A stretch of DNA of 64,000 nt from Longimicrobium sp. (GTDB taxonomy: Bacteria; Gemmatimonadota; Gemmatimonadetes; Longimicrobiales; Longimicrobiaceae), in the NCBI GenBank assembly GCA_036377595.1, contig DASUYB010000006.1, forward strand, positions 1 to 64,000, given 5' to 3'. Of the stretch, positions 188-14,418 are shown piece after piece (positions within the stretch are counted from its first letter, which is position 1; each line of letters opens with the position of its first letter). A program made the position numbers and the translations under genes. The notes under the pieces are model-generated. The model made no database searches. It saw nothing but the letters and a program-made list of their open reading frames with translations, and was not told where the DNA came from.

Positions 188-420
188 TTGTCATTCCGAG
201 CGGCGCCGCTGCTCTGAGCCTTCAATCGCGCTGATGCCCGGCGGCGCCCGAGGAATCTATGGCCTGCGTCCGAGCGACAGGCGGCCTATGGCTCGGGAGC
301 CGGCCAGAGATTCCTCAGGCGCCAAGGCTTCGGCATGGAGGACAGAGCGGCGCAGCGCCTTCGGAATGACATTCCTTCCTTCCTCCAATGCACATCTGAT
401 CCGGAGATTCGGTATCAGTA
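188..420. repeat. dispersed palindromic repeat, family A copy 1
   Basis: The element begins with tgtcattccg (189-198) and has the inverse cggaatgaca at 362-371. Inside are a second inverted pair (gaggaatct..tggcc and ggcc..agattcctc). A tail at 372-420 carries cctccaatg and gattcggtatcag. The right half plus tail recurs in inverted orientation at 7391-7542, and the outer arms recur at 21424-21606. No transposase is present. It looks like a non-autonomous palindromic repeat (MITE/REP-like). Confidence 0.7.
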
Positions 421-499: not shown

Positions 500-754
500 T
501 CAGCCCGTGCACGTGCTGCCGCCGGGGCAGGAGTAGGTGTTGATGCACTGCTCGGCCGTGGGCTGGGCCAGACAGTATTCCGGGTATGCCGTGCACTCGT
601 AACCGTAGGTGCAGTACCAGTTGCGCGTGTACGGGCACACCTCGGGGTCGGTCCTGGGGAGGTGCCCCTGCACCGTGCCGCGCGCGTGCGTCGCCTGGCT
701 GGTTTCGAAGGTCTGGACGGAGAGCAGGTCGAGATTCAGCCGCAGCTTCTTCAT
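500..754 (-). CDS. Cys-rich pinensin-like precursor peptide
   Basis: An 84-residue peptide. The first ~20 residues (MKKLRLNLDLLSVQTFET) match the leader style of pinensin-type class I lanthipeptide precursors in Bacteroidota and Longimicrobium-like bacteria, followed by the frequent ARGTVQGH junction. The C-terminal half has seven Cys (40, 48, 54, 61, 70, 76, 82) among many Thr, Ser and Tyr, ending in GGSTCTG. The start is fixed by a GGGAGG ribosome site just upstream and by the leader shared with the peptide at 7668-8021. No LanB, LanC, protease or ABC exporter is in the window, so modification and export are unknown. It could instead be an unmodified disulfide-rich secreted peptide. Family assignment is by pattern only. 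Confidence 0.72.
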   Translation of the reverse strand: MKKLRLNLDLLSVQTFETSQATHARGTVQGHLPRTDPEVCPYTRNWYCTYGYECTAYPEYCLAQPTAEQCINTYSCPGGSTCTG

Positions 755-7390: not shown

Positions 7391-7542
7391 TAATACCGAA
7401 TCTTCGGATCAACTGTTGGATTGGAGGAAAAGAAATGTCATTCCGAAGGCGCTGCGCCGCTTTGTCCTCCAGACCGAAGCCGTGGCGCCTGAGGAATCTG
7501 TGGCCGGCTCCCGAGCCACAGGCCGCCTGTCGCTCGGACGCA
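7391..7542. repeat. dispersed palindromic repeat, family A copy 2 (inverted)
   Basis: This is the reverse complement of about 255-420, including the tail (taataccgaatct, ggattggagga) and the core from tgtcattccgaagg to gaggaatctgtggcc. Similarity stops abruptly after cgctcggacgca. The rest of 7099-7667 holds no convincing gene; only this element and the hairpin after it are recognisable. Confidence 0.7.
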
Positions 7543-7555
7543 TGCGACCCGTGCG

Positions 7556-7600
7556 CAGAAAACGGAGAACTGCGGCCAGGTGCAGTTCTCCGTTTTTCCG
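7556..7600 (-). terminator. rho-independent terminator of the 7668-8021 peptide gene
   Basis: A 15-bp perfect stem, aaaacggagaactgc (7559-7573) with its complement at 7582-7596. T-rich flanks on both strands mean it could work in either direction. It lies 70 bases beyond the peptide stop. Confidence 0.7.
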
Positions 7601-7667
7601 CGTTACCGCGTGAACTGGCAGTGGTTGCTACCGCCCGCCCGAATGTGGTCCGGGCGGGGCGCCTGCG

Positions 7668-8021
7668 TCACTTATTACAGCCCGCGCCGCACGTCTCAAC
7701 GCCGCCGCACTGCGTGACGGGGCCGGCCGAGACCTTGTCGCAGCCGGCGCCGCACGTCTCGACGCCGCCGCACTGCGTAACAGGACCGGCCGAGACCTTG
7801 TCGCAGCCGGCGCCGCACGTCTGGATGCCGCCGCACTGCGTGGGACCGCCGGCCGTCACCCGGCAGCCCTCGCCGCACGTGTGGACGCCGCCGCACTGCG
7901 TGGCACCCCCCTCGGAGACGTTGTCGCCCGCGCCTTGCACGGTGCCTCCCCAGTGTTCCAGCCCCGAGGTCTGGAAGGAGTCCACCTCGAGCGCGTCCAG
8001 GCTCAGCCTCAGCTTCTTCAT
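7668..8021 (-). CDS. precursor-like peptide with four tandem Cys-rich repeats
   Basis: A 117-residue peptide. Residues 1-30 are the same leader type as the 500-754 peptide (MKKLRLSLDALEVDSFQTS, then GGTVQG). Residues 41-117 are four near-identical units of 20-21 residues, each TQCGG(V/I)xTCGxGC followed by a spacer such as DKVSAGPV; the last is truncated at CNK. Each unit has three Cys, 12 in all. The start has a GGGAGAAG site. A dedicated terminator lies downstream. The repeats suggest either a multi-core modified peptide cut into several products or a repetitive metal- or disulfide-based structure. No processing enzymes are nearby. Confidence 0.75.
   Translation of the reverse strand: MKKLRLSLDALEVDSFQTSGLEHWGGTVQGAGDNVSEGGATQCGGVHTCGEGCRVTAGGPTQCGGIQTCGAGCDKVSAGPVTQCGGVETCGAGCDKVSAGPVTQCGGVETCGAGCNK
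7671..7901 (-). repeat. tandem 63-bp coding repeat (3.7 units)
   Basis: Four units within the peptide gene. The two 3'-most units differ at only a few of 63 bases, while the first unit (encoding GEGCRVTAGGP) is more diverged. This is the pattern expected from recent expansion by unequal crossing-over at the 3' end. Confidence 0.85.
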
Positions 8022-8545
8022 GATCTTCTCCCGATTGAGGGGGTGAATGTGGCACCGCCGGTCGGCACGTCGCGCGGGGATGGCACGGGATACGTACCCG
8101 TTCCTTCTGACTCGCCCGGACGACTCGGTGCACTGTGCCGCGGTGGCATTGTTTGATCCACGTAGGGGAGTTCACGTAAGGTCTTCAATGATGGGAACAT
8201 CCGACGGGTGGGGAGGAGGTTGAGCCACAATCACCTGCGCAATGTTGCGTTACGTGTCTGCAACGAATCGTGGCGCAAGGCTCTTCGCCAGCAGACAGCA
8301 TCACGCGCAGGAGCGCTCGAGTCGGAGTGGCCCTGCCACTTGTTTCTGATCGCTGCGGACGGAGCGCGGTGAGTCGCGGAACGGGTGCGCCGGGTCACGA
8401 GGATCGAAGGCCACGATGCCCTAGCAGCCGAAGAACCCCGCGCCCGCCGCCGCCGCGGAGCCCGCCTACACCGATCATCAACCAGTAGCACAGCCGCTGG
8501 TGGGAGGTGCGCGACCCAGCGGTGGCACTTGGCGGCATTGTTTCT
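8022..8545. other. intergenic stretch without a recognisable gene
   Basis: It holds the 5' region of the repeat-peptide gene. The small open frames here have no ribosome site or protein-like composition. Base composition begins to fall toward the lower-GC island that follows. Confidence 0.5.
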
Positions 8546-8811: not shown

Positions 8812-9846
8812 CTACTGGGGCAGCGGATAAGGCTTGCTTTTCTTGTCGCTCCACAGGTAATCGAAATGTGCGCTGAAGCTGTGCTGCGCTCCTGAAAGTC
8901 GGGCATCGAGGAGAAACGCACAGTTGTCTCGGCTTCTTCCGGTTGCGGAGACGACACATACAAGAATTTCGTCATCAAAGTAGAAGGCGATTTGAGTTGG
9001 GAAATCGTCATATATGCGTATCTGAACGCGGTCTTCGAATTTGTGCAGGGCAAAACGGACGCTTTTAAGGTTTGTATCAAGCTCCTCGCGGTACAATGCG
9101 ATGTTATCGGCAAACCCGACTTGCCCACCACGATAGTTCACGAAAACGCTCTGTGGATTCAGTGTAAGCAGGCGCAGTTGAAGGCTTGGCCGCTGATTCA
9201 TCCTCTCGACGAGTTGCTGAAGATAGTCGGTTGCTACTGTGACCAAGTTAGTCTGAAGAATGTCGATGCGTTCAGTCGCGGCCAGGATGCGGGCACGAAT
9301 GTTGGCTTCATTGCGGGTCGCGAAGTAATCGATCTGCGCCGCGTGGCGGTGGCGACGCGCGGCAACCTCCTCCCGGATCATGTCCAGATGCTGAGCAATC
9401 GCGCCAGGGAGTTCACCCAGTCGTCCCGGGGAGTAGCGGACCGTGATATAGCCTGCAAGGTCTGTTGGAACATCTTTTCGGTCTTGACAGATCAGGACAA
9501 CTGCGATTCCGAACCCCTTTGCAATCCCAGTCTCGTAAAGTACGTTCGGGTTTTGCCCCGTCAGGTCAGCAATGCAGAAATCGGATCGACGTAACCGGGT
9601 AACAACGTGCTCGTGCAGGTCAGCCCTGCTGATGGTTCCCGTGTCAGCACGAGAGACGTGGATCGGCATACTTGGCTTGATAGTCGAAAGCGTCATGAGC
9701 GCGTCATATACCTCATCGTTATCAACCTCAGTTCCACTTGAATCGATCTTTTTGCCAAATGGCTGAATGACGAAGCATGTCATGGGTTCTGTATCTGCTT
9801 CATCAGGCGAGAATTGGAATGGGGCGAGAGATGCTGGCGTCTTCAT
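8812..9846 (-). CDS. nucleotide-hydrolase/TIR-like plus PLD-like two-domain protein
   Basis: A 344-residue protein. Residues 22-150 form a Rossmann-like unit with FVIQPFG (25-31), RADLHEHV (from 75) and IADLTGQNPNVLYETG (92-107). This layout is shared by nucleoside 2-deoxyribosyltransferase and TIR-like NAD-hydrolase domains, the Glu in YETG being the catalytic candidate. Residues ~165-340 resemble PLD-like domains found beside such effectors, beginning with a FATRNEANIRARILAATE helix and ending FSAHFDYLWSD. I see no HKD catalytic pair, so this half may be a sensor rather than a nuclease. ATG 9846 was chosen; ATG 9783 is possible. GC is clearly lower than the flanks. It could be an anti-phage effector, but that is inference. 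Confidence 0.7.
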   Translation of the reverse strand: MKTPASLAPFQFSPDEADTEPMTCFVIQPFGKKIDSSGTEVDNDEVYDALMTLSTIKPSMPIHVSRADTGTISRADLHEHVVTRLRRSDFCIADLTGQNPNVLYETGIAKGFGIAVVLICQDRKDVPTDLAGYITVRYSPGRLGELPGAIAQHLDMIREEVAARRHRHAAQIDYFATRNEANIRARILAATERIDILQTNLVTVATDYLQQLVERMNQRPSLQLRLLTLNPQSVFVNYRGGQVGFADNIALYREELDTNLKSVRFALHKFEDRVQIRIYDDFPTQIAFYFDDEILVCVVSATGRSRDNCAFLLDARLSGAQHSFSAHFDYLWSDKKSKPYPLPQ

Positions 9847-10061
9847 ACTGAGCCTATGAAATTTTTCTGATGGTGAGGAGGAGACGCCCGGGGATCGCGT
9901 GCGAACGGGCGCTGCGTTCGTTCTGAGGTTCTGTGTGATGCCCGAAGCCAAGGTGGAACGCGAGAGGCTTTTCGGCTTAGGACGAGAAAATCGTGAGGGT
10001 GCGTCATTCGTTTCACAAGCAAACGTTCGGCGGAGTTCACTGAATCGTTCACCGCACAGCG

Positions 10062-10325
10062 CAAGTCCCGCTTCCTGCGTCACCACCGGCCTGCTATTCT
10101 GACGCGACAACCCTCCCGGCGCTCCGCGCGCCGGGCTTCGTTTCGGGACCGGAATTCGGACCACAAGGGGAGCCCGTGAGCGACGACCCGCTCTGGTACA
10201 AGGACGCCGTCTTCTACGAGCTGCACGTCAAGGCCTTCCAGGACTCCAACGGCGACGGCATCGGCGACTCCAACGGCCTCATCCAGCGCTTGGACTATGG
10301 GCACGAGCTGGCCGTCGACTTCAGG
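10062..10325 (+). repeat. direct duplication of the treS 5' region, copy 1
   Basis: Matches 11027-11287, from cccgcttcctgc through the promoter-proximal sequence (ggcgctccg..gccgggcttcgtttcgg) and the GTG start into codon ~50 of treS. The coding portion is almost identical. Similarity ends around 10325, inside the stop of the membrane gene at 10321-10851. Confidence 0.85.
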
Positions 10326-10355
10326 GCCGCATCAAAGACTTGCGTCGACGCGTGA
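10176..10355 (+). pseudogene. truncated 5' fragment of treS
   Basis: Begins with the same GTG and the residues [20 protein letters not shown] as the intact treS at 11137. After about 50 codons it diverges and stops at TGA 10353-10355. It covers only the first strand and helix of the GH13 barrel, so it cannot be an enzyme. It is a by-product of the duplication that brackets the 10321-10851 gene. Confidence 0.85.
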
Positions 10356-10851: not shown

Positions 10852-11026
10852 ATTGTCGCTAGCTTGCCCAGCAGTTCATGCTCTGCCTCAACTCCACTTC
10901 AACAAATTGCTTGCGACAATATGGGAAGCAAGGAAACATGCTGTCGCTCCGGAACTCTCGGGAACTCAGTGGATGCATGCCAGCATATGGAGATAGGGGA
11001 AACTCGCACCCGCTTGTCACCTCTAT

Positions 11027-11287
11027 CCAAGGCCCGCTTCCTGCAGCGCCGCCCGCGCGCTATTCTGACGCACACACCTCCCGGCGCTCCGGCGCCGGGC
11101 TTCGTTTCGGACCGGATCATCATCTTCGAGGAGCCCGTGAGCGACGACCCGCTCTGGTACAAGGACGCCGTCTTCTACGAGCTGCACGTCAAGGCCTTCC
11201 AGGACTCCAACGGCGACGGCATCGGCGACTTCAACGGCCTCATCCAGCGGCTGGACTACGTGCAGGAGCTGGGCGTCGACGTCATCT
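11027..11287 (+). repeat. direct duplication of the treS 5' region, copy 2
   Basis: The intact counterpart of 10062-10325. It contains the presumptive treS promoter/leader, the ribosome site GAGGAG and codons 1 to about 50. The two copies flank roughly 700 bases of lower-GC DNA carrying the membrane gene 10321-10851. Confidence 0.85.
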
Positions 11288-14200
11288 GGCTCCTCCCCTA
11301 CTACCCGAGCCCCCTGCGCGACGACGGGTACGACATCGCCGACTACTGGAACATCCACCCCAGCTACGGCACCGTCGACGACTTCACCCGCTTCATGGAG
11401 GAGGCGCACCGCCGCGGGCTGAAGGTCATCTCCGACCTGGTCCTCAACCACACCTCCAGCGACCACCCCTGGTTCCAGCGCGCGCGCCGGGCGCCGAAGG
11501 GAAGCCCCGAGCGCGACTGGTACGTGTGGAGCGACAGCGACGAGCTGTACCGCGAGGCGCGCATCATCTTCACCGACACCGAGCCCAGCAACTGGACGTG
11601 GGACCCGGTGGCCGGGCAGTACTACTGGCACCGCTTCTTCGCCCACCAGCCGGACCTGAACTGGGACAACCCGGCGGTGAAGGAGAAGATGTTCGAGGTG
11701 ATGGAGTTCTGGCTGGACCACGGGCTCGACGGCTTCCGCGCCGACGCGGTGCCGTACCTGATCGAGCGCGAGGGCACCATCTGCGAGAACCTGTCCGAGA
11801 CGCACGACATCCTGAAGGAGTTCCGCGTCCGGCTGGACTCGAAATACCGCGGCCGAATCCTCCTGGCGGAGGCGAACCAGTGGCCCGACGACGTGCGGCC
11901 GTATTTCGGCGACGGCGACGAGTTCCACATGGCGTTCCACTTTCCGCTGATGCCGCGGATCTTCATGGCCGTGCGCCAGGGGATCCGCAAGCCGATCGTG
12001 GAGATCATCCAGCGCACCCCGGACATCCCCGGGAACTGCCAGTGGTGCATGTTCCTGCGCAACCATGACGAGCTCACGCTCGAGATGGTGACCGACGACG
12101 AGCGCGACTACATGTACCGCGAGTACGCGCAGGATTCGCGGATGCGCATCAATCTCGGGATCAGGAGACGTCTCGCGCCGCTGATGGACAACGACCGGCG
12201 CAAGATCGAGCTGCTGAACTCCATCCTCTTCACCATGCCCGGCTCGCCGATCATCTACTACGGCGACGAGATCGGGATGGGCGACAACATCTGGCTGGGC
12301 GACCGCGACGGCGTGCGCACGCCGATGCAGTGGACGCCCGACCGCAACGCCGGCTTCAGCCGCGCCGAGGCGCCGCGGCTGTACCTCCCCGCCATCGCGG
12401 ACTCCGTCTACGGCTTCCAGGCGATCAACGTCGAGGCGCAGCAGAAGTCGCCCTTCTCGCTGCTGAACTGGATGCGGCGGCTGATCCGGGTGCGGAAGCA
12501 GCACCATGCCTTCGGCCGCGGCTCCATCACCTTCCTGGAGCCGGAGAACCCCCACGTCCTGGTCTACATCCGCGAGCACGAGGAGGACGCGATCCTCGTG
12601 GTCAACAACCTCTCCGGCGCGGCGCAGGCCGTCCGTCTCGACCTCGCGCGCTTCGCCGGCCGCGTCCCCGTCGAGCTGCTGGGGGAGACGGAGTTCCTGC
12701 CGATCGACGAGACGCCGTACGCGCTGACGCTGAGTCCCTACGGCTTCTTCTGGTTCGCGCTGCGCACGTCGCGCACGCCCGAGGAGCTGGAGCTGCACCC
12801 CGAGCTGGCGCGCGAGTGGGCCGAGCAGGACACCGCGATCCTGGAGAGCCCGGCGTCGGTGGCGGGGATCATCGACGCGCTGCCGCACGACTGGCTCTAC
12901 CGCCAGCGCTGGTTCCGCGGCAAGGCTCGCGAGGTGGCGCGGGTGGAGCTGGCCGACCACGCGGTCCTCCGCCCCGAGCGCGCGCCGCACGTCCTGGTCG
13001 CCCGCGTTCGCGTGCGCTACCGCGAGGGCGAGCCGGACGTCTACCTCCTTCCCGTCTCGCTGCGGCCGACCACGGCGCCGGGGGTGGAGGCGGAGGCGAT
13101 CCTCTCGCACGCCACGGAGCGGGGCGACGTGCGCGTCTACGACGCGCTGCTGGACCGGCGCGTGGCGGGATCGCTCCTCGACCTGGTCCTTTCCGAGCGC
13201 ACCATCTCCGGCGTGAACGGGCGCTTCAGCGGCTGCACCACCTCCAGCGCGGGCGACCGCACGGTGCGGGGCCCGGCGCGGCCGATGGGCGCGGAGCAGA
13301 GCAACACCTCGATCGTCTTCGGCGAGGAGTACGTGCTGAAGATCTTCCGCAAGCTGGAAGGGGGGATGAACCCCGACCTGGAGGTCACCCGCCACCTGGT
13401 GGAGAAGGCCGGCTTCCGCTCGCTTCCCGAGCTGGCGGGGTGGATCGAGTACGAGGGGACGGACGGGGTGAAGTCCGCCGTGGCCGGCCTCTTCCGCTAC
13501 GTCGACAACCGGGGTGACGCGTGGAGCGTGGCGCTCCGCGCGATGGACCGCTTCCTGGGCGCGGCCAGCCGCAGCGCCGCCGATCCCGACACGCCGACGG
13601 GGCGCGACGCGCTCTACCGCATGGCGGGTGACTTCTTCCCCGCCGTGCGGCGGCTGGGACAGACGACGGCGCGCCTCCACCTGGCCCTGGCGAAGGAGAC
13701 GGACGATCCCGCGTTCGCGCCGGAGCCGGTGCGGCACGACGACGTGCGGCGCTGGGCGGACGGCTTCCGCCGGCAGGTGGACGGCGTGCTGGGCGAGCTG
13801 TCGCGGCGGCTGGATGCGCTTCCCGGCTCGTTCCCGCGCGAGATCCAGGGGCGGCTGGCGCAGGTGGTGCGGGCGGCCAACGACCTGCGGCTGCGCGGCG
13901 AGGACCTGGAGCTGCTGGCCGACACCGGCAGCGTGAAGGTGCGCATCCACGGCGACTACCACCTGGGCCAGGTGCTGCGCGGCGCGCACCCCGCGCCCGA
14001 CGGCAACGAGTGGTACGTGATCGACTTCGAGGGCGAGCCCGCGCGTCCCCTCGAAGAGCGGCGGGCGAAGTACTCCGCGCTGCGCGACGTGGCGGGGATG
14101 CTGCGCTCGTTCGACTACGCCGTCCGCCTGTCGCTCCACGGATTGAAGATCGACGACCTGGCGGTGCGGATGTCGGTGGAGCGCTGGGCCGAGGCGTGGC

Positions 14201-14418
14201 GGGCGGAGGTGCGCTCGCTCTTCATCTCCGCCTACCGCGAGACGCTGGGAGATTCGCCCGTCGTCCCCAGCGACCTGAACGCGACCCTGCGCGCGCTGGC
14301 GGTGTTCGAGCTGGAGAAGGCGGTCTATGAGCTGGGATACGAGATGAACAACCGTCCCGAGTGGGTGTGGGTGCCGCTGCACGGCGTGCTGGCCATCGCG
14401 GGGGAGGGCGCCGCGTGA
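11137..14418 (+). CDS. treS: trehalose synthase / maltokinase fusion
   Basis: 1093 residues, the usual size of the TreS-maltokinase fusion. The N-terminal GH13 part (~1-550) interconverts maltose and trehalose. It has ISDLVLNHT, the nucleophile in GFRADAV (Asp203), the acid/base in LLAEANQW (Glu245) and FLRNHDE (Asp311). The C-terminal part (~600-1093) is a Pep2-type maltokinase: QRWFRGKAR entry, [19 protein letters not shown] for ATP, catalytic [11 protein letters not shown] (His938, Asp940) and VIDFEGEP. Together they convert trehalose to maltose-1-phosphate. I use GTG 11137 because GAGGAG precedes it and the GH13 barrel begins at once. The stop overlaps the next GTG start (GTGA). Confidence 0.95.

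What the first reader, a model, noticed from the sequence alone, without database searches (positions are those of the whole stretch)
7668..8021. Repetitive 12-Cys precursor peptide with four tandem CGG-x2-TCGxGC units
A pinensin-like leader is attached not to one core but to four near-identical 20-21-residue units with three Cys each. The 3' units are almost identical at DNA level, so copy number is probably evolving. This could be a multi-core modified peptide, or a repetitive metal-binding or structural peptide. I know of no described example with this repeat.
Basis: partly seen in the sequence, partly recalled or inferred. Interest (0 to 1): 0.75.

Follow-up and report, generated by a model that had tools for sequence, protein, structure and literature searches.

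The report
Four-repeat lanthipeptide precursor without nearby enzymes
This small gene most likely encodes a peptide made of four near-identical blocks that distant enzymes in the same bacterium stitch into sulfur-bridged rings, and it is one of at least 150 precursors in this genome sharing the same recognition tag, more than the largest set I found reported for one genome.

Summary
Window 7668-8021 (-) encodes 117 aa: a pinensin-like leader, then four 18-aa units, [ST]-x4-T-[QK]-C-GG-x2-TCGxGC, spaced 20, 21 and 21 aa, with three Cys each.

It is not an orphan. The same leader heads at least 150 Cys-rich ORFs in this genome (none in reversed or shuffled controls) and occurs in exactly the 10 of 21 same-family genomes that encode a LanB dehydratase. 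In this genome's C103 cluster, about ten such ORFs lie beside split LanB, LanC and an ABC exporter; four related genomes have leader ORFs beside LanC. Across 131 paralogues, Ser/Thr sits five residues before Cys far more often than in shuffles. In all 16 units of five homologues (3 or 4 units per gene), three Ser/Thr and three Cys never vary. An acidobacterial class V-like lanthipeptide cluster carries the same unit many times.

Best reading: a standalone multi-unit class I lanthipeptide precursor, modified in trans by LanB/LanC. The repeat architecture and family size look new; the chemistry would be known. Ring formation, leader removal, cleavage between units, expression and activity are untested. 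The target scores below NCBI's pinensin cut-off; one paralogue passes.

The parts
7668..8021 (-). Repeat precursor gene, 117 aa, 12 Cys
   Evidence: Intact ORF; five homologous genes in four genomes; silent-only changes between units 3 and 4
7932..8021 (-). Leader region, residues 1-30 (MKKLRLSLDALEVDSFQTSGLEHWGGTVQG)
   Evidence: Matches the leader profile at 4e-14; exact cleavage site not known
7863..7916 (-). Unit 1, residues 36-53, SEGGATQCGGVHTCGEGC
7803..7856 (-). Unit 2, residues 56-73, TAGGPTQCGGIQTCGAGC
7740..7793 (-). Unit 3, residues 77-94, SAGPVTQCGGVETCGAGC
7677..7730 (-). Unit 4, residues 98-115, identical peptide to unit 3
8025..8032 (-). Probable ribosome-binding site GGGAGAAG
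   Evidence: Read from sequence; similar purine-rich sites precede the homologues
7634..7658 (-). GC-rich hairpin just after the stop
   Evidence: Sequence recurs with changes downstream of all five homologues; predicted stem
7559..7596 (-). Terminator-like hairpin followed by TTTT
   Evidence: Conserved in five homologues; 126-nt 3' region folds with z -6.6; the simple terminator scan did not list it
500..754 (-). Second precursor of the same leader family in the window, 84 aa, different Cys-rich core; family member, not part of the repeat peptide
   Evidence: Leader profile E 7.7e-15

Best explanation
The gene encodes a class I (LanB/LanC-type) lanthipeptide precursor with a tandem-repeat core. 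SHOWN from sequence: the leader is shared by at least 150 ORFs of this genome, co-occurs with LanB across genomes and lies inside LanB/LanC clusters; each unit keeps three Ser/Thr and three Cys; the gene stands alone with a ribosome-binding site and a conserved terminator-like hairpin. INFERRED: the leader is recognised in trans by genome-encoded LanB and LanC, most likely the split LanB plus LanC on contig C103 that lies among the same leaders. LanB dehydrates Ser/Thr and LanC closes thioether bridges. If each Ser/Thr precedes its Cys by at least three residues within one unit, only one pattern fits: S/T1 to C8, T6 to C14, T13 to C18, giving three overlapping rings per unit and twelve in all. 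The leader is then removed near GTVQG and the product exported. I think it somewhat likelier (about 60:40) that the four units stay joined than that they are cut into monomers. The biological role is not known; a secreted bioactive peptide is most likely by analogy.
For: Leader profile: 152 ORFs at E<=0.01 (139 at <=1e-5) in fetched regions, none in reversed or shuffled sequence; 150 of 150 scored candidates pass at E<=1e-4 genome-wide. Leader and LanB present in exactly the same 10 of 21 genomes. About ten leader ORFs beside LanB-N, LanB-C, LanC, ABC exporter and HlyD on C103; leader ORFs beside LanC in G011, G001, G007, G017. Ser/Thr enriched at -5 (z 13.6) and -1 (z 18.9) from Cys in 131 cores. 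Ser/Thr and Cys positions invariant in 16 units, position 1 switching only between Ser and Thr. Same unit in a class V-like lanthipeptide cluster of another phylum. No YcaO, no HopA1 in this genome.
Against: No enzyme gene in the neighbourhood of the target; modification is not observed. The target scores 12.3 bits against the pinensin leader model, cut-off 24. Co-occurrence is over related genomes, so the 1 in 352,716 figure overstates independence. Ser/Thr and Cys are also common in disulfide peptides. The strongest offset is -1, which cannot itself be a ring and is only explained as part of the (S/T)Cxx(S/T)C pattern. S/T1-C8 and T6-C14 spacings (7 and 8) are not enriched in the family.
Confidence: 0.75

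Rival explanations
1. Unmodified secreted Cys-rich repeat peptide, held by disulfides or binding metal through its 12 Cys, with the N-terminal part acting only as an export signal.
For: Regular CGG-x2-TCGxGC spacing; no modification enzyme nearby; no experiment excludes it.
Against: Leader present only where LanB is and found inside LanB/LanC clusters; Ser/Thr positions are as fixed as Cys; family-wide Ser/Thr offset signal; no confident fold (pLDDT 36, weak evidence with five sequences).
Confidence: 0.12
2. A different modified peptide: azole-containing or radical-SAM (sactipeptide or ranthipeptide) product.
For: Weak match to heterocycloanthracin family TIGR03601 (19.6 bits, cut-off 35); one SPASM protein in the genome on contig C17.
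Against: No YcaO in the genome; the SPASM gene is not near this gene; the TIGR03601 match is below cut-off and likely compositional; leaders sit beside LanB/LanC.
Confidence: 0.05
3. Relic or unexpressed copy that is never processed.
For: No sigma-70-like promoter found (such scans are weak in this phylum); no conserved neighbours.
Against: Six of six differences between units 3 and 4 are silent; intact frame, ribosome-binding site and conserved 3' hairpins in five homologues.
Confidence: 0.07
4. Lanthipeptide precursor as proposed, but cut between units into 20-21-residue monomers (true multi-core) rather than kept whole.
For: Near-identical units and variable copy number resemble multi-core precursors of other peptide classes (general knowledge).
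Against: Linkers (RV, DKV, QV, QP) share no cleavage motif; GG inside units is not conserved and would lie within a predicted ring.
Confidence: 0.3

Closest known systems
Pinensin family class I lanthipeptides (NF038180; family I 17 in PMC7268733)
   Same: Related leader (one paralogue passes the model, 14 of 22 match weakly); LanB split into two proteins plus LanC (pinensin split reported in PMC7268733).
   Different: Target below the cut-off; long four-unit core with 12 Cys; gene far from the enzymes; different phylum from the Bacteroidetes pinensins.
Prochlorosins (ProcA/ProcM, SyncA/SyncM)
   Same: Many scattered precursors with a conserved leader and variable cores served by few enzymes; highest count per genome in PMC10783134 is 83.
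   Different: Class II synthetase and unrelated leader; here class I LanB/LanC and at least 150 precursors.
Class V lanthipeptides (APH-fold kinase, HopA1-like protein)
   Same: Acidobacterial contig L078 places nearly the same unit, in many copies, beside APH, HopA1-LanC and ABC genes.
   Different: No HopA1 in the window's genome; no pinensin-like leader seen in the L078 precursor.
Multi-core precursors of other peptide classes (for example graspetides, cyanobactins; general knowledge)
   Same: One leader followed by repeated cores.
   Different: Other chemistries; recognised cleavage sites between cores, not seen here.

Membership tests
Class I lanthipeptide | LanB and LanC encoded in the genome | tested here: met
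   Three LanB-type and three LanC-type loci; LanB-N and LanB-C split on C103
Class I lanthipeptide | Precursor leader shared with precursors encoded beside LanB/LanC | tested here: met
   Same leader profile hits the target and about ten ORFs in the C103 cluster, and ORFs beside LanC in four relatives
Class I lanthipeptide | Precursor gene clustered with its enzymes | tested here: not met
   No LanB or LanC on contig C6; so the claim is modification in trans
Class I lanthipeptide | Lanthionine or methyllanthionine in the product | not testable with these tools
   Needs MS or NMR
Pinensin family (NF038180) | Leader scores at or above the curated cut-off of 24 bits | tested here: not met
   Target 12.3 bits; paralogue L045:7186-7413 passes at 28.0
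Heterocycloanthracin (TIGR03601) and azole peptides | Score above cut-off and YcaO in the genome | tested here: not met
   19.6 bits against 35; no YcaO
Class V lanthipeptide | HopA1-like and APH-fold partner proteins | tested here: not met
   No HopA1 in this genome
Sactipeptide or ranthipeptide | SPASM radical SAM enzyme beside the precursor | tested here: not met
   Only SPASM hit is on contig C17, the target is on C6; action in trans not excluded

The most novel reading that the evidence does not exclude
A single genome runs at least 150 scattered class I lanthipeptide precursors through a few LanB/LanC enzymes, a class I counterpart of the prochlorosins, and this member is a chain of four three-ring modules that stays whole as a twelve-ring product, its module also used by a class V-type system in another phylum.
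Probability: 0.35. Interest if true: 0.8.

Novelty: new variant of a known kind. Interest (0 to 1): 0.62.

Why it matters
If true, a little-studied bacterial family holds a very large natural library of class I lanthipeptides served by few enzymes, which makes LanB/LanC substrate tolerance directly testable and useful for engineering. The repeat peptide would show how a lanthipeptide can grow by adding whole ring modules. The same module in class I and class V-like settings would let two dehydration chemistries be compared on one core.

Tried and rejected
Heterocycloanthracin: below cut-off and no YcaO. Class V machinery in this genome: no HopA1. Dispersed repeat downstream of both window precursors as part of the system: copies elsewhere show no fixed distance to precursors. 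Conserved neighbours: DNA similarity to the homologues is confined to about 7549-8067; tblastx was swamped by spurious GC-rich matches. AlphaFold gave no usable model. Leader dN/dS rests on too few changes to interpret (0.5-3.7). A search around the L078 genome's relatives could not be centred. Literature searches found no description of this family in Gemmatimonadota, but only open-licence papers are held.

Full report
OBSERVATION. The ORF at 7668-8021 (-) is real and has the four units described. Each unit is 18 residues, [ST]-x4-T-[QK]-C-G-G-[VI]-x-T-C-G-x-G-C, starting at residues 36, 56, 77 and 98. Units 3 and 4 with their linkers (21 aa) are identical in protein and differ at six silent bases of 63, which suggests that the peptide itself is under selection. 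A purine-rich ribosome-binding site precedes the ATG, and two hairpins follow the stop, the second terminator-like; both recur in the homologues.

HOMOLOGUES. Among 21 genomes of the same family, three others carry the repeat peptide (G011 twice, G014, G001), each with three units. In 395 genomes drawn from the phylum, only the same four genomes match at E<=1e-10. DNA similarity is confined to the gene and its 3' hairpins, so the gene appears to persist or move as a cassette (inference). In all 16 units the three Ser/Thr and three Cys never vary; position 1 switches only between Ser (11) and Thr (5), as expected if a dehydratable residue is needed there.

LEADER FAMILY. A profile of 73 leaders found 152 ORFs at E<=0.01 in 48 fetched regions of this genome, 139 at E<=1e-5, and none in reversed or shuffled sequence. 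The regions were chosen because the target protein matched there, so this is not a full count; the whole-genome search scored only 150 of 382 candidates, and all 150 passed at E<=1e-4. Leaders are 49% identical on average between random pairs and cores 31% (the core value is inflated by Cys- and Thr-rich composition). This peptide is the only one found with a clear long tandem array.

ENZYMES. The genome has LanB (PF04738) on C98, C103 and C1, and LanC (PF05147) on C103, C98 and C145. C103 holds LanB-N and LanB-C as separate ORFs, LanC, about ten leader-family ORFs, an ABC exporter and an HlyD protein. The C103 LanC keeps WCHG and CHG, which I take to be the zinc-ligand motifs (assignment from general knowledge of NisC). 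In G011, G001, G007 and G017 leader ORFs also lie near LanC; none were found in the fetched stretches of G014, G009 and G011 C4. The leader family and LanB occur in exactly the same 10 of 21 genomes, whereas LanC also occurs in three LanB-less genomes. One over C(21,10) is 2.8e-6, but related genomes are not independent.

CORE GRAMMAR. In 131 cores, Ser/Thr is enriched five residues before Cys (39%, z 13.6) and one before (42%, z 18.9), and Cys four from Cys, with depletion at -2 to -4. This is the pattern (S/T)Cxx(S/T)C, compatible with i to i+5 thioethers; T13-C18 of the unit has that spacing. The -1 signal may follow from the same pattern. The other two bridges proposed for the unit follow only by exclusion: T6 and C8 are too close, and T13 can reach only C18 if each Ser/Thr precedes its Cys within one unit.

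INDEPENDENT CASE. A contig scan found one further relative, L078, from a MAG labelled Thermoanaerobaculum: a 415-aa ORF with many copies of nearly the same unit, beside an ABC exporter, an APH-fold kinase (PF01636) and a HopA1-LanC fusion (PF17914 and PF05147). That is a class V-like lanthipeptide arrangement and supports the unit as a lanthipeptide core. The same MAG also encodes LanB proteins elsewhere, so which enzyme acts there is unproven. The window's genome has no HopA1.

ALTERNATIVES. No YcaO argues against azoles; the one SPASM protein is not linked to this gene. AlphaFold gave pLDDT 36 with a five-sequence alignment, compatible with an unstructured precursor but not excluding a metal-bound form. 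Linkers between units share no cleavage motif, so I favour a product kept whole, at about 60:40.

KNOWN OR NEW. NCBI's pinensin leader model matches 14 of 22 paralogues at E<1, and one of ten scanned singly passes its cut-off, so automated annotation may already label a few. The target does not pass, and I do not file it as a pinensin. Prochlorosins offer the closest way of working; the highest count per genome in PMC10783134 is 83. PMC7268733 describes Bacteroidetes class I leaders and the split LanB of pinensin, and does not mention this phylum. PMC11251773 mentions one class III peptide with a repeated 15-mer. I found no report of this repeat or of this scale, within open-licence papers only.

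Noticed in passing
window 262-415 and 7393-7545: A dispersed repeat (90% identity, opposite orientations) lies just downstream of both precursor genes in the window; more copies occur in L041, L035, L046, L057 and others, without a fixed distance to precursors.
   Followed up: partly
window 10176-10355: Short ORF repeats the N-terminus of the large alpha-amylase-family protein at 10864-14418 ([31 protein letters not shown]...), apparently a partial duplication.
   Followed up: no
window 8812-10164 (-): Neighbouring 450-aa protein with weak, below cut-off matches to nucleoside 2-deoxyribosyltransferase and DUF5919.
   Followed up: no
L017 (G000 contig C20, 11.7 kb): 22 leader-family ORFs packed in one 11.7-kb contig.
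   Followed up: no
L065:13654-14400 (G000 contig C98): Precursor-like ORFs with a diverged leader and (S/T)xxC repeats (CSNCSDCSNC...) inside a second LanB/LanC region.
   Followed up: no
L078:77-6439: Class V-like lanthipeptide cluster in a MAG labelled Thermoanaerobaculum: ABC exporter, 415-aa precursor with many TxGGxTxCGGxxTCG units, APH kinase, HopA1-LanC fusion.
   Followed up: partly
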